In this document: piece after piece, positions 1 through 64,000 of the stretch
How the letters are laid out: each line of letters starts with the position of its first letter
How positions within the stretch are numbered: position 1 is the stretch's first letter
Assembly (NCBI GenBank): GCA_921293015.1
Contig: OV121088.1
Span: forward strand, 22,233,645 to 22,297,644
DNA: 64,000 bases
Origin: Phorcus lineatus
Taxonomy: Eukaryota; Mollusca; Gastropoda; Trochida; Trochidae
Reading direction: 5' to 3'
Notes under the pieces: model-generated
Told to the model about the DNA's origin: nothing
Databases searched by the model: none
What the model saw: the letters and a program-made list of their open reading frames with translations, nothing else
Made by a program: the position numbers and the translations under genes

Positions 1-3000
1 TGTCAAGATGGTCGCGGTAGCAGGTCCAATCCGGACTGAAAAATACAGTTCTACACTGTCAATGCTGTTCGGTACAAGAGTGTAAAACACAGTTTATTGT
101 TCTATTTCGTGAGTCTGATAAAGGACTACAATCGATTTACTAGGACATGCTTATTGACTCATCATATACATGTACAAGTCAAAATAGTTTGAAATCCAAA
201 CTTCAAACCATTAGTGAAAATGATATTGGGCATTTTCCATAAAAGGTTAACTGGCCTTCATGCAAAATTACCATAGGTGCTGATTCCAAATAATCCCCCT
301 CGATTTACATAATTGTATTAAATTATCTATTTAAAAAACATGTAGTTGTTTTTCAGTGATAATAGAGAAATGACCTAATAGAAGCCATAGTTTAACTTAT
401 CTAACTCTACCAATCCCTAAATGTTGCCCTAAATGAGTTTCGAAAACTACCTCTACTCCATTGGCGAGGGCTAACCGAGGTACAGCGATAAAACGTAATT
501 CTTTATGTTGTCGCCATACAGACCTGACTGACGTTGAAAGGGTTAAAACGTTGTCCACAAAAAACACTATTTCCATGAGAGATAAAACAATTGATAAATT
601 CCATATTTACAACAGATATGAGTCAACATACTTTGCCATTTTATAGAAAGCAAAAGTTATCATATAGATATATTGATATTACCAGACATCACATGTTGAC
701 AGTTCAACAGACTTGTTCTCTGATCTCATTTCATTCCAACACTCACGTCCTGATTTGTAAACTGCAATGAAAAACATCTACATGCCAAGCAATAATCTTA
801 ATGCAGATTGAGCAGGTATGTATCAAAACAACACAGACCCAAATGTCAGGGGATAAATAAAAACATACACTTGGCAGGACTAAAAATTAGGTGTCATAAT
901 TCCGTTATTGCCAATTTTATTCTTTGCCGGGAAATAAATTATACATGTGTACTTAATCAAATATCATAATCGGTATCTGATAAGAGTATGAAATGTTGCA
1001 TGTGATCAATACAATATATTTTACATTAAGACATCATATAATTATTTTGCCAACTTGATTGTACTTACTTTTATACATTTTTCTGCATGATATGATTTCA
1101 CAAGCAACTTTTGATACAGACATTTAAGATAAAGACAAACTGTTAGGCAGTGTGGTTAAATCTACCTTAATCTAACAATCTCACTTACCGTTTGTTTCAG
1201 CACAGATATGTAGTTTCAAAACCATCATGATTGCAAATGACGCACTTTGAAAACTCTGACATTCCGCCAAAGAATCGGCACAATGTTGCTCTTCTCTGAG
1301 TGTCTCATTACTGCAAGACAGTAAATGATGATACTTACACCATAGAGACATTAAATAATAAAAATGAAAAAAAAACGGTAAATAATATATTTATTGGCGA
1401 TTCGAAAAACCACATTTATTTCCCTTCATTAAGTCATTTCATTAGTATTGATTCTTGTTATTAAAATATTTTGAAACGAGTATAAGTTGCATTTCCAAAG
1501 CGTACAAAGTAATTTTTAATGTCGAGTCGACCCTTAAGATCGTGTGGTACCTAAAAGAAATCTACAGTGTAGCTTGTTTTAAAAGTGGCTAAATGAGCTA
1601 CATAGACGCCTTACAGCTTAATATTTTACGAACGGTTTGGTTGAAAATGTTACATAATCATATCCGGACAATTTTACAAGGAAATATTCAAGATAAAATC
1701 ACACAAGAGGAAACTGTTCACTTACAAACTTACTTACATGATAACACAAAGGGATCTGATATAAAAAGTTATCATGAGATTCTGAAACCTTATTACTAGA
1801 GACAAAATAATGTAAAATATGTTTGGTAATTGTTAATGTTTGAGAAGATTATGTTAACGTTGGAATGCGACACATGTGTGTGTAGATGCTTCACCTGCAA
1901 TCCAATATATTGTTTCCATTCTTGTCGAAGAGTTCATCTGGGTCGAAAGCAATATACGCGGGGCTACACTCTCTGAGGACTCGAGTTATACACTGATGTG
2001 GGCTCTCCCTCCGGACTCGAGGGAATCCCAACACCCATCCGTTGGCCAACACTGGAGTGGAAAAATATAAAATCATCGAGGTTTTATATTGTCTGTCAAA
2101 TATATTTGTAGTATTGCTCTTTTACAGTAGTAAGCCGTAAAAGATTAGATGTTGACATCTGTCACTGCCTAATTAAGATCCTACTTTTCAAATAATTAAT
2201 TTAAGAACTTAGCCACTAAATAACTATAAGCATTTGACTTCAAGGTTTATTAAGAATAACGCCGAGTTAACATATTTAAAAACATACTTTGTTTCATAAA
2301 AAAGAATAGAGAAAAAGTTTTATTGCAGGATTGCAACGTTTCGGTGTATATACTAAGCACCGAAACTTCGCAATCCTGCAATAAAGAAGTTGTAAATCCA
2401 TAGAATTTATTTCTTTCATCTCACCAACTTCGAAATGCCTCTCAAAGAAGTCCTAATGAAAAGGTGAAAATGAACCAATTGCTAATTTTAAGATGAAGGT
2501 GCGAGTACGTTCTAAAGGCTGTAACGTTTATTACAGTAGAACGTTTTAAAAAGGATAATTCTTAAACTTCTCCCCAAATATATGTTCATGCCTAATGCAT
2601 TATTTATCTTCAGAGGGGCAAACATCTCATCTTTAATCCGATTATGCGTACTCGTAAGAAAGTATCAAGTATCGCAAGTTTTGCGTGAACACATTTTAAA
2701 GGTGGGAAATGGCCTCGCGAAGGTGAACCGAACATGTTACGGTCGTTTAGCAACTGCTTCTTTTAGTTATAAAAGATTGCCTTTTAAATGGTAGTATTTA
2801 TTATCGTTTTTTGTGAGATCCCTTTCTTTAGTAAACTGAAAACGTGATACTGCCCTTTCAAACAAACTATTGAATGTAGGTACTGTAGGTTGTCAAAGTA
2901 AGTTATGTTCGTAATATTTCTAGCACATTAAAAGCCAATTAAAATATCAATAGTTGACATGTTCATTCTTTCATCTCATATATGTATCGCTGCACATAGA

Positions 3001-4216
3001 GGATCTATAGTGATTAGTTCATTGCCCTCAGTGTAACCTTTCGTCGAAGCTCGTTGATAACGGGGCGTTTTCCTCTTACACAATGTACATAAATATAGTA
3101 ACCAGAATTAATTTCGGGGTTCGTAATTGTGCAATGCGGGTATAACATAATAGATGACTGAGAGTGGAATTTAGAGTTATTCATTAAATATAAAACCCTA
3201 CGTCTTGGTGAAAAATGATAAAAACTCACAAAAGACCTAAAACCTCCTTCAAATTAAGTCTACTCTCTAAAACCCTTCTTCCTGTTGAGGAAATATAAAG
3301 TCAATGGATGTACACCTTTACTGCCAACAGATAAAACACAGCTTTCCAGCAAGTGATGACGTACTCTTCTTATTTAACCCCTACGTCGTGTTTATATTCG
3401 AGGATACCATGACTTACTCTTTGGAAAAGCTAGCACGTAGCACGTTGTTTCGAAAAAAAATTTTATTCAAATGTTTACGTATAAACATTTTTATGCCAAT
3501 TGAATCACCTTCAAAAGGGTGAGACATCTCATCACTAAACCTGATCGTGTCAAGTCGTATAAGTACTCTTGAAGTGTCAAGCAATTGCAAAAACCACCGA
3601 CGGCCATTTCTTAGTGAATTATACTTTAAACTATTTTAGATAAGAAACGTTGCTTTAATGAACATGCTGCGTTCTCTTTGGAACTGCTTATTTTGGTTAA
3701 TTACCTTTGTCTTGTAATATATAGCTAATTATCATTTTCTAGTGATCACTTTACCTAAAATCGTGCTTCTGCCCATTTAAAGATAGATATTATCATTTTC
3801 AATCACGGAGGTTCAACAAACTCTATTGATAAACGTTCATCTTCACTGAAAGACGTCATCTGACCAATGCATAGGGTCATTTGTTATACTACACGACCAA
3901 CAAATTCACTGCGCACAATTAGATATTACAGTGACTATACTGTTTTGACACGCATCACATTAACTTAGTTACTAGGACCAATCTGCCACAATTTTGTTCG
4001 AGACATAGTATCAGGTAGAATTAGTTTCTTAATTCATCTTTTTTAAACTAAAAGGTGGTGTTATGCACGAACAACAAATGCTCAATTTAGAAAAAGTTCA
4101 GTGTTCAAATTTGGATATGATTATTATAAATACGTTTTATATGCAAATTGATATCCGAATAATTGCATGCAAAAGTACTTACCAAGGCATGCAGCGAGGA
4201 CACAAAAGTAAAGCAT
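1..4216 (-). CDS. Gene A: secreted cysteine-rich protein, five-exon gene, 3' end off the window
   Basis: This spliced gene has exons at 4216-4183, 2051-1895, 1310-1189, 761-683 and 35-1 (cut by the window edge). Every intron has GT..AG ends and the phases run 1-2-1-2. Exon 1 starts MLYFCVLAACL and, with the first residues of exon 2 (VLANG), makes a signal peptide. Later exons give CITRVLREC, NILDC, EEQHCADSLAEC, LKLHIC, SGREC, LSTCDVC and DWTCYRDHLD. Ten cysteines are visible in the mature part. Each exon matches the same-numbered exon of gene B, 6 kb away on the same strand, which validates the model. The role is unknown and I recognise no family; a secreted disulfide-rich protein is inferred. 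The promoter is not clear. An acceptor-like site lies just before the ATG, so a 5' UTR intron is possible. Confidence 0.85.
2304..2455 (+). repeat. Hairpin element copy 1 (shared end motif family)
   Basis: Arms at 2320-2346 and 2358-2384 are inverted copies with 2 mismatches in 27, separated by an 11-base loop. The arm end carries TTTCGGTG / CACCGAAA. Downstream comes AATAAAGAAGTTG and, at 2424-2441, CAACTTCGAAATGCCTCT, a motif also found beside hairpins near 7.0 and 55.9 kb. It lies inside intron 1 of gene A. A Penelope-like retroelement end is a possibility, not shown. Confidence 0.7.
2570..3850. repeat. Diverged local duplication in gene A intron 1
   Basis: The stretch at about 2570-2910 resembles 3475-3790. 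Shared landmarks in the same order are ACATCTCAT, then AACTGCTT..TTTT(A/G)GTTA, then TTATCATTTT-like text, then CTGCCCTTT / CTGCCCATTT. Identity is low, so this is an old duplication. No coding potential was recognised. Confidence 0.4.
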
Positions 4217-7004
4217 GTCTCTATCTGAATAGCTCTGAATAAACATAATAGTTCATTCCGTATTTTAGATGTAAATTTTTAAGTGAGCCGATTATCACCC
4301 CATGCAGTTCCGCCTTGTTTGGTTTAATATGGTACGATGATTATGAAACAAAAACCTATGATACCCCGTTGAAATGTCAACACGTATGTTTTGACATTTG
4401 ACGGTTGTTTTCCAAACAAGTAAGTACTCATTTGGTGAAATAGTATCAGAATGTCAGGTTTATATGTCCAGCAAGTCTTTAGTTGTTTGACTTTTGTTCC
4501 ATCCAGCGGTGCAAATAGGTACTTAATATAAGCTTGAATTTGAGATGACCCTTAACAACTTACAGCAATCCAGGTTAAACCAGTTAAACGGCTTTGAATG
4601 ATCAACCGAAAGAAAATCTGTTTTGCTTATAATTTGATTGCGCTTTATTTCATACCCAAGAATTAGGGACATTCGCAGGGGAGGTAATTTCAAAGTACTT
4701 GAAGAGTAAAACATTTAAAATCTCTTGGTATCACACACTTCAAGCAAGGGAACATAACTCTGCTTGGTATCTCGCGCCGCCCTAAGATTTTAATTACCAA
4801 GACGTTTCACACGCATTGCATAAAAAGCAATAAAGGATCGCTATGGTTAACGTTTTTAAATATAAAACATAAATCTTTGATTATAATCCCTTTTAAGCAT
4901 TGTGTTTTAAATGTTTCGATTCTATTTGATTAAGAAAATACATTTATATAGTAGGTCTGTGACATTTATTACTCACATTCTAGTTGATATGTAGTATTGT
5001 TTATCTGCAACAACTAAAATCTCATATCAATCTATTGATTTTAACCCTTTGAATTTATTTTTTAAGATATATAACCAATTTGATCGTGTACAAATTTTTG
5101 GCTTCTATCAATTAAGATAATATCTATCTATAATAGGGATTTATAGTGGCCTTATACTCGATTTACCTTGTTATATTTCGAATTCTTATATATGCATTTT
5201 ATACGACATCGGAATAACTGTAATATTCGTCTATTAAATTTGCTTGAAACGTCAACTTTGGTTAACGCGACTGTCGCATTTATTGCTTTTTATTTGAAGA
5301 TAATGTTTGCTAGAAAGAGCAGCTTTTATGTTTAATGTAATACCTCAAAAAAAAGTCAGGGTTATGTTTAACAATCAGTTACCAGCTCAAGGGAGCGTTG
5401 CTTCCTAAAATAATAACAAGAAACAAGGACATTACAGAGCATTTTTCAGTATTTATGCGACAAAAATCTCAAAAAATTAACTTACAGATAACAACGATTA
5501 ACGAATTAAATATACGAAGATAAATATACTTTGGAGAAATGAGATTTCTAGAGACTAATATTATCTGCATTGTGACAACATCATTCATTAAGAACATTTC
5601 TACTTAGAGTCGTCAGATAAACGCTTTAAATGACAGGAAAATTTATTGCCCCTCATGTTCGATACTGATCCTCCCCAACCGTGGACCAGGCGGAGAGCAT
5701 CTGTCAGCAATTCTCTCACCCTTGCCTCATTGACTGTTTTGAGTTTCCTAATTATGTGGTAATCCCTTTATCACAGTAATTAAGGTCTTCTATTTGCTGT
5801 ATTAAAGAAAGTCTATATTTTGACCTACATTTGGTATTTTCACAAAATAACTGAGGATCGCTCGACTCCCTGATTAATGTTTATGAAATTAATTGCAAGA
5901 AAGAAATCTCAAGGATCATGAATTGGAATAGTTCTAATCTTTTCCTTGTCCTTTAGCAAATCAGAAAACAAAATTGTTAAAGGCAAAGCCAAACTCATTT
6001 TTGTAATGTCTATACAAATTAAAAAGAGAAGCTCTCGTCATTTCAAATGTTGGTATCAATGGACTAATTAGAAATTGAACTTTAAATTCCATTTAGTTAG
6101 GAGCCAACCGGGATAATATAAGACTTAAATCTTAAATCTAGACTTGCCTTTCAAAAGGATAAGTACCCAACAATACTTTATTTCATTTCAGACTGAGGCA
6201 ACTAATATTGCAAACATTTTCTTGACTTAAGACTTACTTTTTTGTTTTCCACTTAATTATGGATGACAGACTGTACAAGGGCGAGAAGTGCTGGTAGTCC
6301 TGTCCATGACTGTAGAATGTTGGAGCCTGCATTACAGTCTAGGTCTTCATTTACCAAGTAATCCAAGTATAGTGTTAAATGTTTAAAGCGGGGCACCATC
6401 AATTCTAAACAAATATTAAATACATGAAAATTTTGCCCAGACAGATTTGCGGTGACTGATTGGATATGAGGGACCGAAAACTTGTGATATTTAGGTTGAG
6501 GTCAAATGAGTATCATCTCATGTCAATTGAACTAGGGCATAACTGAAAAATTTCTTTATTGTGATGTTCATTTCAAATTCACTGTTAAAATTTGATTCCA
6601 TTCAGGATTGATGGTAGCAACTATCGTCTACAATATTTACTCATCCGAGGAAGTTTGTTATAAAATCTAAAGTTTGTTCATTTATTCACTTTATTGAAAA
6701 TATGCAATATATATCAGACTCGGATTAATATGTTTCAAAAAGAGCTCATGTTGTGTATCAACCTCCTCTTAGCGCGCTTTGCGTAGGCACGGTAAAATAA
6801 ACTCTGGAAACGTTAAGTGAACTCGACAAATTAAAATTCGAGTTTTGCATCAGTTAAAACGAGATAATATTTTGATAATTAAAAATCTGTAATCAAATCA
6901 AGATTGAGGATTACGTAGATATAGAGGTTTTTTTAAGTATTAAGTATTAGCAACACCGAGCATAACTTAAACATTGGTTTTTACTTTTTACAATACAAAG
7001 GATT
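4217..7004. other. Intergenic, no supported gene
   Basis: This is AT-rich DNA between gene A and hairpin element copy 2. A relatively GC-rich patch at about 5640-5760 is open on both strands (minus reading includes TVNEARVRELLTDALRL), and a similar patch lies at 6260-6350. Neither has convincing exon borders or a recognised product. Confidence 0.5.
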
Positions 7005-7194
7005 CATTAACCTATATTGAATTGTTTCAGTGGCATTCTAGAAGTTGATAGTTTGAGGACGACAATGATATATGGATATACAACTTCTTTATTTCACCGT
7101 GGCGAAAAAGTATAAGGATCTATACCGAAACGTCGCCACTGCGAAATCAAGAAGTTGTATATCCATATATCATTGTCGTCATTAACCTACATTG
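7005..7194 (-). repeat. Hairpin element copy 2 with target-site duplication
   Basis: Arms at 7058-7104 and 7134-7180 are 47 bases long with 3 mismatches. A 15-base direct repeat (CATTAACCTAYATTG, one mismatch) flanks the unit at 7005-7019 and 7180-7194, as expected for an insertion of about 160 bp. The left end carries GTGGCATTCTAGAAGTTG, the reverse complement of the end motif in the copies near 2.4 and 55.9 kb. The loop contains CCGAAACGTCG. Confidence 0.75.
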
Positions 7195-10100
7195 TAAAAA
7201 AGATAACTGCGAATCCTTTCTGTCTCAGTAAACTTTATGCGATTGTTAGTACCGAGCAAGTACATGTGGTCGTAATCATTATGTAAGCATTTTAAAAACC
7301 GCCACCCACAGTTGCCCCCTACTGTCAATTGCTTTGAATAGTGTGGTCCACTGAACAGTAGGGTCTCAAATTACAAGATATCATCAGTTTGAGAATGTAG
7401 CAAATGATATAACCGGAGGTGACGTAATAAGATTCGCCAACTAATGTTATCGTGAAGGCTCGATTGTAGTAAATACACGAAAGTGCACCAAATAATTTCT
7501 AAAATTCCAGAGCACTTAATTTTTATCGTCTGAATATGAAAATTTAACATCCGCTTAGTAATATTTGAGGTTTGCACGTGCTCATATATTTTGATAACTT
7601 CTTAGTATGCTGCTGATTTATGTGGTGGTCAACGTTTTGATTGTAAAGCTTGGTGTAAAATATAACCCTTTTGTTCCTTATTGTTCATATCATTAATTAA
7701 GTACGTTTCTAACACGCATATTAACCATGATTAAACACATTCCTCCACATTATCTTCCTTTTGGTGTATCATACAAAAACGTGAGACAAAAGATGAATTC
7801 GAGATAAAACCAAAATTTAGTCAACAACAAATGAAAACATTCTTGTATATAATATCACATTTGTTCTGAGAAAAATTGACTCCCTAACATGTAATTTTTT
7901 GTAAAATCATAATGAAATTATTTCATTAGTAACTATCGTTTTTTCGTTTTACAAATATATTGCAAAATGTTAATTCATGTTCAATAAGTATTATATTTTC
8001 CAAAAAATATTAATTGCTAAACGTAAGACCAAGCATAATTAACCAAAAGCTCTAAACCTTAAGCTGACCAGCAAACCCGCTTGAAGTCCCAGCTAAGTAA
8101 AGGGGAGCAACTCGCCTTGTTTCTAAGAATTTAAAGTTAATTTTTCTATACCAATTTTTGACTGGAAAGCGCACCATGGTGCATCTTTTGAAATGCAATG
8201 TTTTTAGATTTTACTGTCCATCAATATATGCAGATTAGAAATCAATGCTGGCACGCATGCACAACGTAATAGTTTTGCCACAAATTAAATCAAGTTTTAA
8301 AATGGTGAAAAGCGCATATTTCTCTGAAATAGCATGGCGTTGTACAGAGCTGACATAGGTGTTTTGTATTTCAAATGGCACCATGGGTATTTGCAGTAAA
8401 AATATGTAAAAAATATCTTTTTATTGGTAATTGAATGCTCTTTCACAATTGATGCTGGCACGGTTTATCATATGAATGGTAAAGCAGTAACATGGCTCTG
8501 GTCCTACAGAAAGCATCACCGTTTCACGGTTCACTGGTTCGAGCGCTTCACTCACTGTGTCGGCTCTGAATGTCCCTGATTCTTGGACATGGTTAACTCC
8601 TCAGTGTAGAAAGTGATTAAACAAAATTTTAATACGAAATCGTATACCTTTTTAGGGTTGTTCCATATTAGAATTTCTCTATTCACATATAGTATATTCC
8701 CATAGATGATAATCGTTAGACGTGATATGGTGCAAAATATTCTCTGTAACAATTTTGCACATATTTTCGATTTTTTTTAAATCTTCAAAAAGTGATATTT
8801 CTAAAACAAATTTTATAACTATCTATAACAATTCAGATACAGTGTAGCTTCTGTTTTTGTCTTTTGGAAGAAATATGTCCGCATTGCACAAGAGAAGAAA
8901 CTCTAGTCTTCCCTACAGTGAAAGTATCAGACCAAGTAGTCAGTTTGCGACATTAAAACTTTGATCGCAACCAATCACATTTCTTTATTTATAGCCATTG
9001 GATATTCCGCTAAAAACAGAGGTACATGTAACATAATATATATCACTTGAGGTTTCTCTGTTGGTAGAATATGATGCCATGAATTTGCCAACGTAAAAGG
9101 AAGCTTTTTAGATGAGTACAGTAGATGTTTCTCTTCGTACGCTAATTTAGCCAGGTTGACTTGTTTTCAGTCAGCGAAATCGCTCATATGTCAAGGAAAC
9201 TCTTAAAGATGCAATTTTCAACATCGATTATTGTCTGTATTCATCTATAATATATGAAATCGTTTTACATTGATTAAGGAAGTGCCTTGTATAAGAGACA
9301 CACATGTATATGCGAATTGCATGTAAAATTCCCAACGATTAGTTGGAAGAACGTTGTATCGTGTTACTGAACATGATTGCAGTAAAACCAATCAGGATCA
9401 TTTGTTACAGAGAGAAATATATGCTTGAAACAGAAGTTACTTGGGAAGATATGATATATAACTTCAGCGAGATGAGAACGGGTTTCGCATTTTTTTTTAA
9501 ACTTACATCCTGTAAATCTCGCCTTCAACGACTTATATTTATCCCCCAAAAAAATTTTAAAATCTGCCCACGAAATTTTGATTTGAAATATTACTGAATT
9601 TAAAACGAGAGCTTAAAAAGAGAAACCCAATCAATTATGAAAGTTACTAGTTCAGTTCTTCACTACGAATTTAATTTGTTCTCCCTTTACTAAAATGATT
9701 TATGAAACAAACTATACTAATTCTTGTTGACGCATCCATGTTCTATTCGGATTTTTTTTAAAATGGGACAGAAATTAAAATGGAATAAAAACTTTATTTT
9801 TTTTTCAAACCAAAAACATGTAAACATGAAACACATGTAGTCAGGTAGTTACCGATGCATCATCTTAAAAAGGACATGTAATTATGAAACATTACGGCAA
9901 ATGCAAAAAGAAAGGAAAAAGAATGCTGTAAACACATAAGTTGTGAATTTATAAGCTTTTTATTTTTATATATGAATCATTTTAATTGTTGTGTAAGCAA
10001 ATAATTGTCATTTTAAGGCAGTCAATATATTCATTGTCAACAGTAACTTTTAGTGATTGTTTTTCCACACGGAATATAACGTAATTTTTAACAAGTGAAC

Positions 10101-10319
10101 GTGCTTACATGCTAAAAAAACAACTTGGAAAAGACGCTCTGCATGTGAAAACTGCACCTCTTTCAATATTAAGATATATTTACATATACTTGTATATCAA
10201 TGAGAAATATATGATATCTTCAAACACTCCTTGGTCTTGTACCACTAGACTAATAGCAGTAAAATAAATCCTCGTATCGTTTAGATATGAAGTAATTGGG
10301 GAGTGTCGTTGTCAGTCAC
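7195..10319. other. Intergenic, no supported gene
   Basis: AT-rich, with several homopolymer runs. One plus-strand stretch at about 8502-8587 follows an acceptor-like CCTACAG and is open (ESITVSRFTGSSASL..), but it has no partner exon. A minus-strand TTTATT at 9958-9963 could serve as a distant poly(A) signal for gene B. Confidence 0.45.
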
Positions 10320-12646
10320 CTAAAGGAGTTGTTGTTGTTGTACTGGTGGACACATGTTGTTGTTTCGTGTGTAGATCCTTGCTATGTCTAAAGCAAATTC
10401 TACATGTTTGTCCAGACAAACAGTGATGTTTTTAAGCTTTGATCTCAGACACGCACGATCGCTGAAACACAAAATATTGACAAACTATAAAGTATCTCAC
10501 GGTGTTTTAGGATTCAGGATTCCGTCAAGAATAGCAATATATTTAGTTCGAATAAGCATATAACAACCTGTACATATTAAGGAATTTCAAATCTGTAATA
10601 TATAAAACAAACATATGAGAAAACCAGTTGGTCTACACAATTTAGTCCACTATGCCTCACAGGTATATGCAGATCATTGATGTATGATATCAAAATTGTT
10701 AAATACAATCATTACAAAAAGATGACGTCTTGACTGCGTATTACACAGCAAAATTCATACTTCAGCTCTGTCTTGAAAGTTCCTGACAATTTCATTTTCT
10801 TGATCTTAGGAATGCCTCCGGAACGAATGCTTTGAACATTCATACTATTAACAAAAGATGATTGAAGACAATCTAGATTTTTGTCGGCGATTCGGATATC
10901 TTCAAAATGATTGATTTTCTCCAAGTTTCACTACAACAAAAGAAACATTTAATGTGTATAATAAAGGGGTTTTAATATCTCACCAAAGGTCACATTGACG
11001 AAGTACTTGAGTTCTGTCTGCCGTCTCCATACAGGCCCGTCCAGTCTCCACAACTGTAACAATGCATGTGTCAACATTTCGAGAATTCCATAATATGTAC
11101 AAAAGACAAGTGTCTATTTTATGTTAGATATACTCTCTGTACTCGTCTTGAATCCATATGGAATTATGCTATACCTAGATTAGATTTACCTTTCCTACAA
11201 TGAAGGAAAACGTATCATTGCATTGTACAACAACTACTAAATTCCTTTCATTGTTTACAATATACGAATACAACTTCGCTCAACATGGCATACATGTATC
11301 TGTTAAAATGAAATATTCACAACTTAATATAAAATTATTGGCTTGCGTCAGTGCCTTTGTAAGAATATCTTAAGGCACATTTAAATTGAAGTAGGATCAG
11401 TTCAAGTCATTAATATGATCTGCGTGATCCTTGATCGCACTTGATCAAAAGCAGTTAAGCATTCCTCCGAATCCTGAAGGGTTCACATTTAACTCAGTTG
11501 GTGATGAACCAAACTTTTGGTCGACAACTTTCTCAAATCAATCAAAACAAGAAAATCACCTCTTTGGCTACCACAGAGAGCCTCCTTGATCTCCAGTTGG
11601 TTTATAAAGCGACTGCGCATGCGCTGCCACTCTGCTCCTGGACAAGAATCGCGGATACCTTCAACACATTGTCTGTCCTGTCGTAGTGTTGTGTTACTGA
11701 AACATAGAAAACTGCTATTGAACAAAACTGTGCAAAGATATCAATCTTTAATCCCATCTCATATATTGAGCTCATTTATCATAGGTGTTAATTATGCCTC
11801 TGTTTACCTTTAATTGCAGGTGTTTTGTTATATTCATCATACATATGTATGTTTGATTTACTTTAATCACACCTTTATATCAATCATACCTGCAGTCCAT
11901 ATTGACATGTCCATCACCGTCGTACAGGGACGCCCTGGTCTGGGGGAGGCGGGGAGGGGTACAGCTGAATAATGCAGTAGCACATGCGTCGTCGTTCCTC
12001 GCATTTCTTAGAGAAGGCGAACCTTGGGAAAACAAAACATGAATGTCAGAATAGAAATGAGTAAGTCTTCATTCTAATCATTTCAAATATAAAGTAACAA
12101 TAAAGACAAAATAACGAAATATCAAATATATAAACATGTCAACTTACATGAAATAATTGATATTTTGAGATAAGTAAATTCCAAGAATCCAAATACAATA
12201 ACAAAGTATATTGGATCTCATATAAACTACCTAAACATCCTATACATGTGTATGTTATGCATTTACATATGATTCTTTGAATATTGAAATATTTTATAAG
12301 ATTTATAATATTTATGTTAAATCTATGACATGACATCAATTGAGAAGGGCAAAGATAAATAATATCATAGTGGATTTACGATTGTGAATTGAAAACACAT
12401 GCAATAAACGTTTTATGAGTAGCGTTGTTTGCAACGGATCACGTTTTCAATTTAAATGAGAGTTTCGCATACTTGAACACAAAATCATCTTGTGTTATCT
12501 TTTTACACTTACAAAAAAGACAAGGCAAATATATACAAATGCGTGAATAAAAAGCAAATCGAGTTTAATGCAGGAAGAACAAGTAACCTACCCCATGTGA
12601 GGCCCAGGAAACAGAAACCAAATGTTAGGGCACCTAGTGAATTCAT
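10320..12646 (-). CDS. Gene B: secreted 12-cysteine protein, complete five-exon gene, paralogue of gene A
   Basis: Coding exons are 12646-12592, 12022-11890, 11696-11560, 11053-10984 and 10461-10320. Together they give 537 nt, or 178 codons plus TAG. All introns are GT..AG with phases 1-2-1-2, as in gene A. Residues 1-18 (MNSLGALTFGFCFLGLTW) are a signal peptide. The mature part has 12 cysteines, for example ACATALFSC, NMDC, RQCVEGIRDSC, EALC, GRACMETAD, QCDLCDRAC, ITVC and NNMC, followed by a polar Gln-rich tail (PPVQQQQLL). No membrane span follows the signal, so secretion is inferred. An alternative last exon may begin at 10934 after a good acceptor (TTGTTGTAG); it would end after 18 codons. 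I recognise no family. Spacing of cysteines in helix-like stretches suggests a small disulfide-stabilised helical domain. Confidence 0.88.
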
Positions 12647-16140: not shown

Positions 16141-16199
16141 GTCATTTTAGGTTACCCACCGAATCAAGTAATGACTTTTGCATTTGAATAAACTGCAGG

Positions 16200-18149
16200 A
16201 TGGCAGAAGCCCAGAAAACAATAGATGTTATTGATCTACAGGACAGGTTCTTGGAGTGTCCAATATGCGTAGAATACTTCAATCAAACAGATCGACGCCC
16301 TCGACTCCTGAACACATGCCTTCACGCCTTCTGCACCCGATGTCTGGATAAACTCCAACAAAAGGATAGAAGAGGACAGGTCACGTGTCCAGTTTGCAGA
16401 CGTGTTGAAAAGATCAAAGGAAAAGCAGATGGTCTACGTGTGGATCCTGTGCGAAGCAATTTGATTGATTACTTACAGATGAAAGAGAAGAAAGGAGTTG
16501 CTTGTACTGAATGCAATGAGAATACCGCGATATCTCAATGTATCGAATGCAAATCTTTTCTCTGTAAAGAATGCGATTTCGTCCATAAACGCCACAGGGT
16601 CAGTCGAGGGCATACCATCATATCATTAGAAGATGTACTCAGGCAGCCAATGGAGAGGATAGCCAAGAGCCACTTTTGTGAAATTCATCCGCAACATCAG
16701 GTCGAGTTCTTTTGCACAACAGAAGGAAAGCTTTGTTGCGTGTCGTGCACTGTTGTGGAACACAAGGGACATGATCTTCAGAAAGTGAAGGAATCTTCTG
16801 AAGACAAGAAACAGGAATTGGAGGCCGATGTTCAGGAGTTGCAAAATGTGAAACAACATTTGAAGGACGCAAAGGTAAAAGAAGAGAAGCAACTGAAGAT
16901 AATCAAGGAAACAAAAAGTCAATCACTTGCAGACATTGAAAGCATGTTCGACAAAATCAAAAAACAATTCAACGAGAGGAAACGTCAACTAATAGCTGAT
17001 GTTATTGTCAAAAGTAAAAACCTCTCTGAAGTTGTTGAAAAGAATATAGAAGCCAATCAGCAAACTCTAGCAACTTTAGAATCTACTGAGACCTATTTCA
17101 CACAAGCTAAAGAGAAATCAGACGATGTCGATATGTTACAGATGTATCCCTCAATCAAAAGAAGCCTGTCAGGTGTAGGTTCACCACAAGGAGTTTCTGA
17201 TTTTGAGGCATCTGTCCAAAGTTTCATGTTTCAAAAGAAAATGGAAAATGACATATCAACAATGATTCCTCAGTTGGGAGATTTCGGTATGTTCATTGAT
17301 AACTACTTTACATATATCTTAAGAAGCAGTAGCTTACATGTACGTAATATCACTGTTTTGGCAAATTTATCTTAAAAATTCAAAAGATGAAAGTGTTCCA
17401 TAATTTTTTTTTTATCTTCTTCTTTTTCAGAGTAAAAGGACATTAAAGGCTGAAATCGATATGCATTTTCCTTTTCCATTTTGTATTCTGGATAGGTAGA
17501 TTTGGTTGACCCTAATGAGGGCTTGGGGGTCAAGCATTTTAAACTTATTTTCATCCTTCTCTCCAGGTTAGGGGAACAGGTACAGTGAAAGGGACAAAAA
17601 TGATTTTTAAAATGTTATTTTCCTCCAAAAAAGGATTTTGTGCCAACTCTTATTCATTCAGTGACTCCAAAATTTTCTTACATTTTAAGAAAAATTCGCA
17701 AATTTGCTATCTCAAAATAGTTATATTGTATATATTATTTGGAAATTTCAGGAATACAGACAACGGGGAATTTGGCCGTCCATTACCATTCTGCTCACGA
17801 TTCAACACCAAATTGGAATAATACTTGTGAAATACATCGTAAGCTTGCTATTTTGAAAATGTTTTTATTTTGTACATTACCTGGAAAAATTAAACGGATT
17901 TCAGGAATGCAGACAACAGGAAATCTTGCCGATTATTCTTGCTATCCTGCTTTCACACCATTTGGTTATAATATTGGTTTCAAGATTTACATAGAGGATA
18001 TTATGTATATGAATTTCCAAGCCATAGGGTATACAGTACAGTACAGTGCTTATATAATAAACCTGTATTACCCCGAAAGGAATTCAGTTTGTATCATTAC
18101 AGAGCTTGAACATACAGGAAAGGCAACACAGGTTACATGTGATACATAA
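16200..18149 (+). CDS. TRIM-type RING / B-box / coiled-coil protein (likely E3 ubiquitin ligase)
   Basis: Spliced coding exons are 16200-17286, 17752-17838 and 17905-18149, giving 472 residues. A C3HC4 RING lies at residues 20-66 (CPIC, CLHAFCTRC, CPVC). B-box 1 starts near residue 102 (CTEC, CKECDFVHKRH). B-box 2 is near 160-195 (CEIHPQHQ, CCVSCTVVEHKGH), followed by a coiled coil to about residue 300. RING TRIMs usually act as ubiquitin ligases; that role is inferred. Exon 1 ends GATTTCG|GTATGT, phase 1; exons 2 and 3 both begin GAAT(A/G)CAGACAAC after TTTCAG, so they are homologous units. Intron 2 is only 66 bases and open in frame, so its retention would add 22 residues. An acceptor (AACTGCAG) sits one base before the ATG, so a 5' UTR intron is likely. 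No NHL, SPRY or other known C-terminal domain is seen. Confidence 0.88.
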
Positions 18150-20150: not shown

Positions 20151-21198
20151 AAATCTCTTTCTGGTCCTAAAATCAGTTACCGCATGCTACTTAAATAAAT
20201 GAAATCTTAAGAATTTTAGCTTAACTGTAAGACTGCTAAGGTCAGCCCATCGAAATGCAATAATCAACAGCATGGAATATTCAAACTTAGATATTTTGTT
20301 ATTGTTGTTATCCCGTTCCAGCGTTTAGAGTGAAGTGGGTTATAAAGTAAATAAGGCAGCCTCTCTCAGTCCATGCGTCATCTTTTTATTCCCGGAGCAT
20401 AAATTTAGAAATCATTACATCTATTTATAATGTTGCACATGCTTTACTTACCAATTGAAATAGTGCTTTTAGTATTTAAACATTTTTGAAAAATTGTTTT
20501 TGGCTGTTATGGAAACGAATTCAATTTTGAGTCTGAACGGAGGTTGGTTCGTTTACGGAGGAGAACTCCAAAACAATTGATTTTCTTCCTGAAACAATGC
20601 ATGTGTAATACCCACCTGTTGACGTGGTACCTTTTGATATTGTCTGACATCTGAATCATTTTTGATTCATAGAAACATGTTCAACATGGACCCTTAGTTT
20701 TATTCGAACTTCGAGGGAATGTCATCCTCGGAAGTCTCGTGAATAGGTTTGAAGACCCCGTGGACCCTAATAAGGTCTAGAGAGCTGAAATCGTGTGTGT
20801 AGACGTCTTAGCTAATGATAATTGTAGCTTATAGATCTTGTGGTCCAAAATATAGTTTATAAATGAAGCCTATTAAGCTTCTCAACCGAACTATGAGTGA
20901 TGGAGATGTCATGCTGTTAACAACATTAGTGCCTGAGTTTTGGTATTTTAAAATAATGGTAAGAAATACAATATGGACAATTGACATTCCATTTATCTCT
21001 TCAGCTTAACACTAGTCAACGTCTTACATACTCTAGTGGTTGTTTAAAACCTTGCAAGAGACTTCGAATCATCGCTGCCTTCGGATGTTAATCGAAATCT
21101 TAGAAGAAACATAGCACATGACCTTAACAACAAGTATTGCCATATATATGATTTACATATATTATATTTTATATGTAACTCTATCGTTACTCCCACAG
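20151..21198. other. Gap between TRIM duplicate and PARP gene
   Basis: No supported gene. It should contain, or be spanned by, the upstream part of the PARP gene, but I could not identify those exons. A polypyrimidine tract followed by CCCACAG ends at 21198. Confidence 0.4.
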
Positions 21199-22973
21199 AG
21201 AAGAAGAGCGAAGCCACTCCTAAACCCAAACGTATGGCAGAGAAGAACGCCGTTTGGGGGCTACAGGGGGCACGGGGATCTATGGAACTTATTGATGAAA
21301 TGGCGGAAATGTCAGAGGTTTTGCCACCTTCCTATTGGAATGAAAACCATTCAAACAATCGCTTGAAAAGAAACATAACACATTTTAAAAGATCCCAACC
21401 GCCTTCCAATGGACTGGTGAATGTGGACAAAGCTACTTTCAATGCAATAGAATCGTTGGTTCAGAAGACATGGGATTCATATCTCGTAGGTCATGGTACG
21501 GATGCAGTAAATCTTGTTCACAAGAACTTAAGAGTGAAGCACATTCTGAGACTTGAGGACCTAGAAATGTTCAGACGTTATAGCCAAAAGCGTTCAGCCA
21601 TATTCAGGGCTGCACGCAATCACGGAGGACCTTTCACACCAATTAAAAACCTTCCTGGATCCAAACATGGCGTGCGTACAACTCAATGTGCACCTCCAGA
21701 GTTACAGCGAGATATATTCCCTGAAGTCAATGAACATTATCTCTTTTTCGGCACAAAGCTAGAAAACATACAGATAATCGTTACCCAGGGTTTAGATCCA
21801 CGTGTGGGCGGTAAGGGCATGTTTGGGTGTGGAGTTTATGGGGCAGAGAGTTCAACCAAAGCAGACCAATACACAGGTATGTGGAGCTGGAACAGACAGT
21901 CCTTCTCAATAAAATATTTTAATCGAAAACAGTTTGTAAACTAGAGTCAAACATAAAACTTAGAGTTTCTTAGTTTCTTTGTAATAATTAGATATTTTAG
22001 ATTAGGATCATCAGACATTTCAAACACAAAGAAAAGAATAATAATTGTGCAACTGCATGCGTCATACATTGTATACGTAAAATCGTACTGTGAAAAAACC
22101 AGAGGCATTATAATTTGACTCTACAGTCAACATTTAACAAATGTCACAAGTTCTTCATGTAAACATTTCATGAAGTCAAAATAGTCTAGATTTTCCCGTG
22201 CATTCATCCGCCTCTTTAATAAAGCTACACTGCTTATTAGAACTGTATTTCATTTCACAATATTTACGATTAAAAAGTAATAAGGTTGTGTGGTGAGACC
22301 ATTATTAACCAAAATTATTTGCTAGGAGTCTGGTTATGAACTATTTTAATACTTTTGTGCTGTTAAACTCCCATTTATAGTTTCTTACACCGGTTTATGA
22401 TTTTGCTTGATGGGCGAATCTTCCGAGGGTCCCTGTATCTCGTTTACAAACAGTGTTACAAACTTGGAACTTTCGTCAAATTATTCGTTGAAGTAAAACA
22501 ACATTTTTTATTATGAACCTCGAACTAATGTTTTTAAGGTTGGTTGTTTATGCAAAATCGGGTTTGAATAATTAAGCCGGGTCCCATAAGTCTCAAATTA
22601 CTTGTTCGATTTAAGACGTTATTTATGCTATTATAATATGGTTATACACCCCTGACTTTTCCAAAACATATCTTTATCTCCAAAATATGCAATATTTTCA
22701 CTTCCAGATAACAAACACAACCGGACACAGTCAGACAAGCAAATGTTGTTGATGCGGGTCACTATGGGTCAGCCCCTTATCAGTCTCCGTCCCAAAGACT
22801 ACTGTCGACCTCCTTGCAAAGATCCTAGACATCTAGACGACAGGTGTAACCAACAACATAATGGTTTCTATGATTCTGTCATTGGTGATGGCCCGTGGAA
22901 TTTCCGAGAATTTGTTGTGTATACTGATGATGTGTGTTACCCTGAGTACGTTATAACTTACACAAGGGTATAA
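21199..22973 (+). CDS. PARP catalytic-domain protein with atypical triad, 5' exons not located
   Basis: Two exons are clear: 21199-21876 (acceptor CTCCCACAG; donor ACAG|GTATGT) and 22708-22973 (acceptor CTTCCAG; TAA stop). The join is phase 1 and restores the frame. ADP-ribosyltransferase motifs run in order: NEHYLFFGT, GMFGCGVYGAE with SSTKADQYT, LLMRVTMGQ, YDSVIGDG, NFREFVVY and YPEYVITY, ending at the usual C-terminus of PARP domains. Counting from the in-frame ATG at 21234 gives 302 residues. The triad position that is normally His (HGT/HGS) is Phe172; Tyr202 and Glu282 are present. Reduced or absent activity is inferred. A Cys/His-rich loop (CRPPC..H..C) follows the VTMGQ strand. Upstream residues (KKSEATPKPKR) are in frame, so the ATG at 21234 need not be the true start. 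Confidence 0.87.
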
Positions 22974-24752: not shown

Positions 24753-25905
24753 AACTCTTCAAAAAAAGAAACTTGACACTGACTTTCAAAGTTCAATATA
24801 AAGACCACAGATGCAAGTTAAACATTGAAATGAAAACTGAAACGCTGTTTGAAGATCTCTGTTCAGTAAATTTTATTCAGAATAAGCATGATCTTGAAAT
24901 GCACAGGTGCACAAGTGTTTCAACATCACAGGGGTGCACAAATGTCAGTATCGGGTATGGCCACCATTGGCATTGATTATTGCTTGGCACCGACGACCCA
25001 TGGATGCAATCAAGCCTGTGGAATGTTCTGCCATTCGTGCTGAAGTGCTGCAAGACGTCCTGGAAGTGTTTGGGTTGGTGGATTCCTACTGCGCACGCGT
25101 CGATCCAGTTCGTCCCAGAGATGCTCAATTAGTGACAAATCCGATGACCTGGCTGGCCATGGCAATGTCTGGACATTGTTACGCTGTAAAAAGTCTTGAC
25201 AAACACGTGCAACATGTGGTCGAGCATTGTCCTGCTGAAAGAGACCACCATGGACGTTGACGTGAGGAATAACGTAAGGCTGTAGGATCAAGTCCCTATA
25301 CAGTACTCCTGTGAGGTTACCCACAACATGCACAAGGGGTGTCCTAACACCGTGACGAATCCCGGCCCACACCATGACACTCCCACCTCCAAATGGGACA
25401 ACCTCCTGAACACAGTTGGCAGCATAACGTTCTCCACGACGTCGGTATATACGTGCTCGTCCATCACTTCGTTAAAGCAGAAAACGGGACTCATCAGTGA
25501 AGAGAACGGTTCTCCACCTTGCACGTGCCCATCTCATCCTCTGTTGACACCACTGGAGACGTTCCGCCAGATGACGTTGCGTTAAAACGGGACGTCGAAC
25601 CGGTCGTCGTGGAAAAAGTCAAGCTTCTCTCAGCCTGTTGCGTACCGTTTGGTCTGAAATTCGACGCAGACCTGGTATCTGCGTTGTTGTTGTTGAAGTT
25701 GCTCTCCTGGTGCGTTCCCGAAGGTGGAGCAGTCGGATGTACCGATCTTGGGCCCGAGTAGTCACCATTGGTCTGCCTGACCTTGGCCTATCTTCAACGC
25801 TGTTTCGGGTGTTGAAACGGGTCCACAATGAAGAGATGGTCTGTCTGGACACGCCAAAGTGTGTTGCAACATCTCGCTGCGTCGCTCCTGCTTCTTGTAC
25901 AGGTT
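24753..25905 (-). mobile_element. 5'-truncated Tc1/mariner-type transposon with broken transposase
   Basis: The transposase runs on the minus strand in at least three frames. From about 25895 it reads GATQRDVATHFGVSRQTISSLW, a helix-turn-helix, then SVEDRPRSGRP. A middle block holds the first catalytic Asp (LFTDESRFCF), and from 25375 come FQQDNARPHVAR and SSDLSLIEHLWDELDRRVR, the second and third DDE-type acidic positions. The 3' end has CTCTTCAAAAAAAGAAAC at about 24757-24774, which looks like a Tc1 terminal sequence. No inverted partner is found at the other end, because the element breaks off near 25905 before the N-terminus. Frameshifts make it non-autonomous. Confidence 0.88.
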
Positions 25906-28376: not shown

Positions 28377-31300
28377 AATTCAAAGCAATTCATCATCACA
28401 ATCTTTTGGGACACTAGCTAATTTTTGTAGTGATCATTGTCCTGTCTTTGTTGAACTGAGATATAAAAAGCCACCAGAACAGAGTTATTTGAGAAGAATA
28501 TATGATTTTAATAGTATAGATGCAAATGGGCTAACTGAAGTAGCTTCATTATTTGATTGGAATGCAGGGTTGAATGATAATGTTAATATAAGCACTCAAA
28601 ACACAATCGAAGCAATATTCTAAGATGCCTAGCGGTTAGAACAATCGAAAAAAAAGTACTTTATCAGACAATAAAGGTATAGTTTTTTCATGACGTAACA
28701 ATTGAATGACGTTATATCCGCTCTTCCCCGCTGCCCCCTCGTGATCACGCGTCAATGGTAACCTTTCATCTCGGTTCTTTCGATCAACATGGCTTGTCCC
28801 TATCAATGTCTATCGTATTGGCGCTTTTGCCGATAATGTTTCTTTTAATGTTGACTAGTTTCGAACCTCATTTAGTTCTATCTACCGGAAATAAGAATGG
28901 AAAGCAAATGCTTGTCGACTGTCGAGTGACCGCGTTGTTTCGCGTCGGGTCACGGCGCCCCGTGGGACTGTGACGTTGGTTCACGTCAACCGTCTCTACC
29001 AGGTTCAATGTGACACGGTCAACCTAATGATTATATAATTCTGGGTGTACAGCCCGAACAGTCTGCTTATATAAGAGATAAAAGCATCACCTTCAACGTT
29101 TATGACAGCAGCAAAAAAATAGATGGCAGGATTGAGTCCGCCATCACGCTTCCAAAACAAACATTACCCATAATTCTTTGTGGAATGTTGACCACGTCAT
29201 AAGCCTTATATGGGCAATGTGACCAGCACTGCATAATCGCGCGACAAGAGTTTGTAAAAGTAAAGGTTTTTTAAAAACCAAGAGGTGTTGATTTGTTTGT
29301 TTAAGTTTTTAAAGAAAAAATAAGCAGAAAATATAATTCAAAATTGAATAAATGAAAAAGTTAATGTGCAAAACTGAAAAAATCAGAGCTTTAACCGACT
29401 AAATGTCGTTTTAAACAAGGGGTTGGGTTCTACACTTGGAATAGCCAACAGTTAGCCCTGTTCATGGATTATTAATGTGAGCGATGTAACCACTATATTT
29501 TATTTCGAAATTAAGATAATCAGAGTGGTCCCTGTAAAGATCATTTAAGCATCTTAGAAAAGAAATAAAGTTCGCTCTACCCCAATGTGTTTTGTAATAA
29601 AGTATAGTTTTGCCCTGAACTATTATAACGTTAAAGCACTCGGACTACCGTCCTCGTGCTTTAACTATAATAGTTCAGGGCAAAACTATACTTTATTACA
29701 AAACACATTGGGGTAGAGCGAACTTTATTTCTTAAACTCAACTAACAGATTCTTTTGTACCTAATCAATATGTGAGAATTCGTTCACGTGACGAACCTTG
29801 GATGAATGGATATATCCGTAAACTCATTAGACAACGTAATAGAGTACATGAAAAAGCCAAAAAATTAAATTCTCCTGTCCTTTGGGAAACATTCATACAA
29901 AAGCGTAACTTTTTAATTTCAGAAGTTAGAAAATGCAAAAAAAAAGAATATAATGAAAATATTGACAATAGCTTAAACTCTGAACACGGTAGTAAAACTT
30001 GGTGGAAATTAGTTAAAGACTATCTTGAAAAATCCTCTAAATCACAATCATTTCCAAGTCTAGAACACGAGGGGCAAATCTATACGATGACGATCAGGAC
30101 AAGGCCAATATCATAAATAATTACTTCGTTAACAATACAAAGATTCCTGACCACGACGACAGTATTATTGACAATACAACAAATCCCGAAATAGCCCTGC
30201 AACAAATACTTATTACAGAAAAAGACATTGAAGACATTTTAAAATCCCTCGACTCAACCAAATCAATCGGCCCCGATAAAATTAGTAACCGAATCTTAAA
30301 AATCCTGTCTAGCGTCCTAGCTAAACCTCTCTGTCACTTATTCAATTTATCCCTATCCCAGTCAATTTTTCCTGATATCTGGAAAGTCGCATCTGTTATT
30401 CCACTCCATAAAAAGGAAAGTAAGCATTTATGCTCCAACTACAGACCTATTTCATTGACAAGTTGTCTTTCAAAGGCTTTTGAAAAATGTGTTCATAAAC
30501 ATGTACATAATTTCTTTTTAAGTAATGGAATTGTTACTCCGTTGCAGTCTGGTTTCACACCTGGAGACTCTACGGTATACCAGCTTACCCATCTTTAAAA
30601 TTTTATAAGTAAATCATTAGATGAAGGTAAAGAAGTCAAAGCAATTTTCTGTGACATAAGTAAGGCTTTTGATAGAGTATGGCATAAGAGGGTTTTATTC
30701 AAATTGAAAAACTATGGCATTCGGGGGAAATTATTGAATTGGTTTGAAAGTTATCTTTCTGATAGAAACCAGTACACAGTGATTGACGGACAAAAGTCGG
30801 ACACCAGATCAGTATCAGCAGGCGTACCTCAGGGTTGTGTTTTTGTTATTTCTAGTTTTTATCAATGACATAGTTGACGAAATAACATGCAATATAAGAC
30901 TTTTTGCTGACGACACTTCCCTGTACGTTATTATTGGTGACCCAAATGAAACATCATGCCTCATTAATAATGATTTACTTAGAATTTCTGAGTGGGCCGA
31001 TGAATGGAAAGTCAATTTTAATACTGAAAAGACTCAGAGCATAACATTCTCCAGGAAACGAGTACCTACGCAAGTACCGAATTAAGAAATGAAAGGTAGA
31101 ATAATAAACGATTTCAGTACTCATAAACATCTAGGGTTGACTTTCCAATCAAACGGTAATTGGCACTCCCACATTGAAAATATAATTTCAAAGGTAAGCC
31201 CGATGATAAACTGTTTGCGGACCCGAACATCAAATAACTTACAAATTCCTGTATGTCATACTGAATTCTACAAACGTTCCTTCCTACCATCGGTCATTGC

Positions 31301-43745: not shown

Positions 43746-44690
43746 TTATACCAAGCTTAAACAATTTATACCAAAGTGCATGTCTAATAACATAATCGAA
43801 AGCCTTTCGATAATCAATAAATATGCACAATACAACTTAATTCTATTTTGAACTGTAATATTAATCAATCCATGAAGTACGAACATACAATCAATAGTGC
43901 TGGAATGTTCTCGAAACCCGGCCTGTTCTTCAATGATTAAATTATACTTATCACACCAAGAAGAAACCCTCAAGTTTAAGATAGAAGTAAACAACTTACT
44001 CAAACACGATAGTAAAGTAACACCTCTATAGTTGTCTGGTGTGACCTTGCTACCTTTTTTATGTATAACTCCTTGAGTCCATCCTGATGGGAAATACCCT
44101 GTTCCATTGCATAGCATTGAACAATTTCATAAGTGTAGGAGTCAATGTTGGTACACCTTGGACTATAAACTCATTCATTATGCCATCATAGCCGGCAGAC
44201 TTTCCGAGTCTTAATCTTTTGATAGCAAGGGCGACCTCATTTTCACTAATGTCGACATCTAAGTTATATGATAATCTTGTTCAACCCATTCTCTCGTATG
44301 GGGCCGCTGTCTGGGGAACACGGGAATACGGCTGTTTTAAAACATTGTGATATTATTTGATTTTATACCTTCATTGGTATTTTAATGTAATATTCAGCAT
44401 GTGACACGTTAATTAAATATTTCTTCCTCTTCTTCTTCTAATTACTCATAACTTAACATTATCAATATCTATTTCTCTAAGGATATCATTGTCTATATTT
44501 CCGGGACTATACATGGATTAAACAAACTCTTAAAATGGTCTTCGAAATCACAATTACCAATTCCACAAGACTTACTGTTATAACCTTTCACTTTTTTCCA
44601 AAATTGGTTTGTATTTGTTCTACTCAAAGTTGAATACATGAATGTTATTATTTTCATAGTTCAGTCTTTTCCCCAAAATAATTGTAACTC
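43746..44690 (-). mobile_element. LINE reverse transcriptase fragment
   Basis: Minus-strand frames read FWKKVKGYNSK and DFEDHFKSLFNP, then ISENEVALAIKRLRLGKSAGYDG, FPSGWTQGVIHKKGSKVTPDNYRG and EEQAGFREHSSTIDCMFVLH, which are reverse transcriptase domains in order. The catalytic block is lost downstream. About 180 bases at 44275-44455 are foreign to this frame and carry another LINE piece on the plus strand (LYDNLVQPILSYGAAVWG). Confidence 0.78.
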
Positions 44691-63240: not shown

Positions 63241-63807
63241 TATGTGTATATAGATTTTATTATGTTATAGATATTTATATATTTTATTTATTCTCTGTAT
63301 TTTTATGTCTTTTTAATAGTCTCTCATAATTCTTTAAAAAATGGCTATATAAATGTATATTTCTTAAAATGTTTAATTGCCTGTATGAGGTGAGACTTTT
63401 AATAAACGATCTGTCTGTCTATAAATTTGGGGAAAACGTTACACGCTTAAGAGGAAAACTGTTATTGCTATTATTATTAGAAGTGTTCACAAATAACACT
63501 TTTCCTTATTTGCAGAACAACAATAGAGTATTTAACCTGATACCCTAAAACATTTTTATTAACTTTCATGGCGTGTATTTTAGCGGTCCATGGGGGACCT
63601 TTTTGAAACGTTTATTATATAATATTATATTGCTTTTCAATAGTTTCCGTCATCAAAATTATACATGTAGGTCCAAATACAAAATTTAATTATTACAAAT
63701 AGGTTTATACAGTATGCATATTGCTACCTATTACCCAAGAGCTTTCTTCAATCCACCAGGTGTATGAAGATTGATCTATAAGATACAAGACAGATCAGAG
63801 TCCCGTT
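63178..63807. other. Intergenic, no supported gene
   Basis: Holds the end of the LINE tail, then AT-rich DNA without recognised features. Confidence 0.4.
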
Positions 63808-63971
63808 GAACAAAACAGTCTAGTCTTAGATCACTAAGTTAGACTTTCCATCTGATAGTTTTAAAAGCATCGAGACAATACCTTGAAGTGAACAAAACAG
63901 TCTAGTCTTAGATCACTAAGTTAGACTTTCCATCTGATAGTTTTAAAAGCATCGAGACAATACCTTGAAGT
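63808..63971. repeat. Exact 82-bp tandem duplication
   Basis: Units 63808-63889 and 63890-63971 look identical over all 82 bases (starting GAACAAAACAG, ending CCTTGAAGT). Confidence 0.95.
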
Positions 63972-64000
63972 GTGTGAATGAGACTTTTTTCTGAACTGAC

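What the first reader, a model, noticed from the sequence alone, without database searches (positions are those of the whole stretch)
1..12646. A tandem pair of unrecognised secreted 12-cysteine proteins hidden in short exons
Two same-strand genes 6 kb apart, each built from five short exons, align exon for exon (NETLREEQHC with NTTLRQDRQC; SGREC..CDVC with TGRAC..CDLC; DWTCYRDHLD with RACLRSKLKN). Both begin with a signal peptide, and exon junction phases are identical (1-2-1-2). Sequence identity is low while cysteines and splice frame are kept, which suggests constraint on fold with fast surface change, as in secreted defence or recognition proteins (inference). I cannot name the family.
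Basis: partly seen in the sequence, partly recalled or inferred. Interest (0 to 1): 0.78.

Follow-up and report, generated by a model that had tools for sequence, protein, structure and literature searches.

The report
Two linked secreted cysteine-rich mollusc genes
Two neighbouring genes in a mollusc-like genome encode small, probably secreted proteins that share a cysteine skeleton but little else; they look like old duplicates of one gene from a family that could not be named here, with unknown function.

Summary
On the minus strand, gene B (exons 12646-12592, 12022-11890, 11696-11560, 11053-10984, 10461-10320) and gene A (4246-4183, 2051-1895, 1310-1189, 761-683, 35-1, cut by the window edge) have GT..AG introns and phases 1-2-1-2. 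Their spliced products align at 29% identity, E 3e-15; the ten mature cysteines visible in A match the first ten of B in order and nearly in spacing. A spliced alignment free to choose its exons recovers exons 3 and 4 of A exactly and part of exon 2, scoring 131 against at most 110 in 211 control runs. Corrections: eight introns, not nine junctions; A shows 10 of 12 cysteines; its exon 5 is a 35-base stub. No family was reached: nothing above cut-off in Pfam, nothing in NCBIfam, PDB sequences or the protein database. DUF19 was not matched; the published I84 inhibitor array is absent. Most likely these are tandem paralogues of a helical, disulphide-locked secreted family. A defence role and fast surface change remain untested. 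Interest is modest.

The parts
12592..12646 (-). Gene B exon 1: start codon and hydrophobic leader, phase-1 donor
   Evidence: ranks first of 9 candidates
11890..12022 (-). Gene B exon 2: Cys 1-3 of the mature protein
11560..11696 (-). Gene B exon 3: Cys 4-6; N-glycosylation sequon; two-helix model
10984..11053 (-). Gene B exon 4: Cys 7-8, first two bases of the Cys 9 codon
10320..10461 (-). Gene B exon 5: last base of the Cys 9 codon, Cys 10-12, stop TAG; one long helix in the model
4183..4246 (-). Gene A exon 1: start codon and leader (an inner ATG at 4216 is also possible)
   Evidence: first of 19 candidates, tied with its inner ATG
1895..2051 (-). Gene A exon 2: Cys 1-3
   Evidence: 3' part recovered
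1189..1310 (-). Gene A exon 3: Cys 4-6
683..761 (-). Gene A exon 4: Cys 7-8, first two bases of the Cys 9 codon
1..35 (-). Gene A exon 5, cut by the window edge: last base of the Cys 9 codon, Cys 10
   Evidence: not recovered

Best explanation
Genes A and B are tandem paralogues from an old duplication. Each encodes a small protein (B: 159 residues, about 18 kDa after the leader) that enters the secretory pathway, may be N-glycosylated, and folds as a compact, largely helical domain held by disulphides, six if all twelve cysteines pair. I think it most likely acts as a soluble extracellular binding protein: the disulphide core keeps the fold while the exposed face diverges between copies. Shown from sequence: gene structure, homology, cysteine frame. 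Inferred: secretion, helical fold, disulphide pairing. Guessed: the binding function; a defence context is one possibility.
For: Splice frame and phases; pairwise homology beyond composition and beyond cysteines; spliced-alignment control; hydrophobic leaders, two sequons in each protein, and no later 19-residue stretch above mean hydropathy 1.32 in A or 0.75 in B; helical models for the exon-3 pair (best pLDDT 79.5, five models 72.2-79.5) and for exon 5 of B (best 84.7, five models 62.9-84.7); exon GC above intron GC.
Against: No transcript evidence. Gene A is incomplete in the window. The helical models are of single exons with one or two sequences, so the whole fold is unknown; the end of the exon-5 model is at pLDDT 50-70. 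Nothing measured speaks for any ligand or function. Single-exon matches are at chance level.
Confidence: 0.5

Rival explanations
1. The pair are divergent members of the T20D4.11-like (DUF19) family, small secreted proteins best known as an expanded C. elegans family. This names the family and does not contradict the best explanation.
For: C. elegans has 51 DUF19 genes, 42 with a signal peptide, 140-220 aa, 14 upregulated on infection (PMC3534327, passages of a table); B is 178 aa. A Pacific oyster protein bears the name (PMC10058639, one passage).
Against: No DUF19 match up to E 10 for A, B or joined forms, although HMMER's filters drop most weak matches.
Confidence: 0.25
2. They are distant relatives of the GDNF-receptor/GAS1 helical domain; the C-x2-C-x3/4-C-x10-C stretch recalls that domain.
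For: Cysteine spacing near the C-terminus; helical exon 5. The resemblance is recalled and comes from no call.
Against: No Pfam match to that family up to E 10; the rest of the cysteine spacing differs from what I recall.
Confidence: 0.05
3. They are Family I84 mollusc serine-protease inhibitors, which also have 12 cysteines and tandem copies.
For: 12 cysteines, signal peptide, tandem copies (PMC9198434, abstract and passages).
Against: Razor-clam I84 mature peptides have 69-89 residues, three exons and a given (variable) cysteine array; B has 159 mature residues and five exons, and that array is absent from A and B.
Confidence: 0.01
4. One copy, most likely A, is a decaying pseudogene, or the first exon of A is wrong.
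For: A has a 2131-base first intron; exon 2 of A can also be read from an in-frame ATG at 2076 just upstream of its acceptor (read); the spliced aligner did not find the 5' border of exon 2 or exon 5.
Against: All visible exons are open with intact splice ends; exon 1 ranks first of 19 candidates.
Confidence: 0.1

Closest known systems
T20D4.11-like / DUF19 (Pfam PF01579; accession recalled)
   Same: Small, mostly secreted proteins of similar length in an expanded family; the name is used for an oyster protein
   Different: No profile match for A or B; cysteine spacing could not be compared because no DUF19 sequence was obtained
MEROPS Family I84 mollusc protease inhibitors
   Same: Signal peptide, 12 cysteines, tandem duplicates in a mollusc
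   Different: About half the length, three exons, different cysteine array
GDNF receptor alpha / GAS1 domain
   Same: Helical, cysteine-rich, similar C-terminal cysteine cluster (recalled)
   Different: No profile match up to E 10
MOLO1 (PF17175)
   Same: Weak sub-threshold match of A only, E 0.0087, 16.7 bits against a cut-off of 27
   Different: Not listed for B; below cut-off in each form tried

Membership tests
DUF19 / T20D4.11-like | Match to the Pfam profile above its cut-off | tested here: not met
   not listed up to E 10 (HMMER filters on)
DUF19 / T20D4.11-like | Secreted, 140-220 aa (C. elegans members) | tested here: met
   B 178 aa with a hydrophobic leader; range from PMC3534327; no signal-peptide predictor was run
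DUF19 / T20D4.11-like | Cysteine spacing of the family | not tested
Family I84 inhibitors | 12 cysteines in the mature peptide | tested here: met
   B has 12; A shows 10 in the window
Family I84 inhibitors | Array CX5-8CX4-5CX7-9CX4CTCX6-23CX5-7CX3-6CX5-8CX4CXC (razor clam) | tested here: not met
   pattern absent from A and B; array from PMC9198434
Family I84 inhibitors | Three exons, mature peptide of 69-89 residues (razor clam) | tested here: not met
   five exons, 159 mature residues in B
GDNF receptor / GAS1 domain | Match to the Pfam profile | tested here: not met
   not listed up to E 10 (HMMER filters on)
MOLO1 | Score above the Pfam cut-off of 27 bits | tested here: not met
   16.7, 15.5 and 13.7 bits

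The most novel reading that the evidence does not exclude
A and B belong to an undescribed mollusc family of helical six-disulphide secreted binding proteins with a fold not yet in the PDB, with further tandem copies beyond the left edge of this window.
Probability: 0.2. Interest if true: 0.5.

Novelty: new member of a known kind. Interest (0 to 1): 0.3.

Why it matters
Genes of this shape, with coding exons of 55-157 bases (the cut stub aside) and paralogues at 29% identity, are easy for similarity-led gene finding to miss. The pair shows that splice phase plus cysteine frame can support a relationship where single exons are at chance level. If the family is expanded in this lineage it would add to the lineage-specific secreted cysteine-rich families of molluscs, which is useful but of a known kind (that such families are common is recalled, I84 being one case).

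Tried and rejected
Protein-database searches with B (19 candidates, none with E<=1) and with the A+B alignment (165 candidates, none with E<=10) found nothing. A control with the window's IAP ORF gave 47 proteins with E<=0.001 among 236 candidates, including Haliotis, Octopus, Sinanodonta and Mytilus entries, so mollusc proteins are in that database; but it needs shared 5-residue words, so a diverged relative can be missed and the blank is weak evidence. Sequence search of the PDB up to E 10: 0 matches for B, for the A+B profile and for mature A. IMG/VR and GTDB contigs: 171 and 102 pattern matches, no relative confirmed by tblastn, as expected for an animal gene. NCBIfam: 0 families up to E 10. 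Pfam weak matches of A, MOLO1 and DAGK_acc (16.7 and 13.4 bits, cut-offs 27), and five of a B-A-B concatenation (Myb_Rap1, Stimulus_sens_1, DUF6519, DUF4258, Eclosion; all below cut-off) were rejected as chance. A fold search with the 45-residue exon-3 model gave 17 matches, none with E<=0.001 (best 3.9), and was discarded as a generic helix pair.

Paper searches, of which I saw listings (titles, abstract starts) and, for four papers, passages: 'DUF19' as a whole word 10 papers; 'twelve cysteine' + bivalve + secreted 3; '12 conserved cysteine' + oyster 7; T20D4.11-like 1; GDNF receptor terms 19, 10 listed; cysteine-rich/orphan/tandem terms 40, 15 listed; K1PB63 1. No listed title or abstract start describes this pair. 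The word-start searches for DUF19 (13 papers; others listed) probably caught other names beginning with DUF19, judging from their titles. Sepia egg-case proteins were looked at (passages of PMC4500399) and rejected: 50 and 55 cysteines.

Full report
What is there. The window is 64 kb, 34.6% GC. On the minus strand, bases 12646-10320 hold a complete five-exon gene B, and bases 4246-1 hold gene A, of the same plan, cut by the window edge in its fifth exon. All eight introns have GT..AG ends, and the coding phases at the junctions are 1-2-1-2 in both genes. B encodes 178 residues and ends in TAG; A encodes 152 residues up to the edge.

Are they related, beyond chance? The spliced products align with E 3e-15, 38 of 132 residues identical. 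In the mature part the ten cysteines visible in A match the first ten of B in order; the gaps are 7,22,10,6,18,11,15,2,4 (A) and 6,22,10,7,22,11,12,2,3 (B). None of 2000 full shuffles and none of 2000 shuffles that keep the cysteines in place reach the real score. Because I chose the splice sites, I also ran a spliced aligner that picks its own: mature B against bases 1-10300 scores 131 on the minus strand and 74 on the plus strand; 10 runs on other window segments give 70-110, 100 random sequences at most 107, and 100 cysteine-kept query shuffles at most 104. Its path contains A exons 3 and 4 with exact borders and phases and the 3' part of exon 2; it misses the 5' border of exon 2, and its two outermost pieces are filler, only 35 bases of exon 5 being in the window. 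Single exons are at chance level (E 0.13-0.15), so the case rests on the joint evidence.

First exons. Among phase-1 leader candidates the proposed first exons rank first of 19 for A (tied with the version from an inner ATG at 4216) and first of 9 for B (donor matrix recalled). For A, an ATG at 2076 reading straight into exon 2 is another possibility (read). Exons are richer in GC than introns in both genes.

What kind of protein. Both have a hydrophobic leader and two N-glycosylation sequons, and the most hydrophobic later 19-residue stretch is 1.32 in A and 0.75 in B. No signal-peptide predictor was run. B without its leader is 159 residues, 18.0 kDa, pI 8.3. Models of the exon-3 alignment (helices 2-17 and 20-43, best pLDDT 79.5) and of exon 5 of B (helix 2-34, best pLDDT 84.7, the last dozen residues at 50-70) are helical. 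These are short pieces and do not give the fold; a fold search with the first returned nothing below E 3.9.

Which family. Nothing above cut-off in Pfam, 0 families in NCBIfam, 0 in PDB sequences, 0 in the protein database. That database does hold molluscs, as the IAP control shows, but its word filter can miss relatives as diverged as A and B are from each other. DUF19 remains the most plausible umbrella from size and secretion (PMC3534327 and PMC10058639, passages), but the profile test was not met. Family I84 inhibitors are excluded on array, size and exon number (PMC9198434, abstract and passages).

How it probably works. Inference: secretion, disulphide-locked helical domain, extracellular binding with copy-specific surfaces. 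I put about 0.95 on the paralogous-gene reading and about a third on the binding role; 0.5 for the whole statement. The claim of fast surface evolution was not tested: two sequences cannot separate age from selection, and no rates were computed.

Source. The IAP ORF of this window is closest to abalone proteins (seven listed, 42-46% identity), with weaker or partial matches to Octopus, Sinanodonta and Mytilus. A mollusc is likely; which class is left open. The organism's own genome could not be searched (11 of 11 requests unanswered; calls listed in Tried and rejected).

Noticed in passing
window 16188-17375 +: TRIM-type ORF: RING and two B-box stretches above cut-off, TRIM coiled coil just below it (28.8 against 30 bits).
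   Followed up: partly
window 21048-21944 + and 22656-22973 +: PARP catalytic domain split over two ORFs: the first part above cut-off (E 2.1e-8), the second below it (E 0.002).
   Followed up: partly
window 39552-35816 -: IAP/BIRC-like gene: two BIR stretches, then a downstream ORF with a RING above cut-off and a BIRC2/3-like UBA below it; the closest database proteins are from Haliotis.
   Followed up: partly
window 25010-25471 -, 30041-30598 +, 43746-44126 -: Three of the ten ORFs scanned look mobile: a DDE transposase piece above cut-off and two reverse-transcriptase pieces below it.
   Followed up: no
window 2319-2385 and 7049-7189: Two snap-back hairpins, one in intron 1 of gene A and one between the genes, sharing 44 bases at 80% identity; perhaps a small mobile element.
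   Followed up: no
window 63807-63972: Two-copy tandem repeat of 82 bases with 100% matches near the right end of the window; recent duplication or assembly artefact.
   Followed up: no
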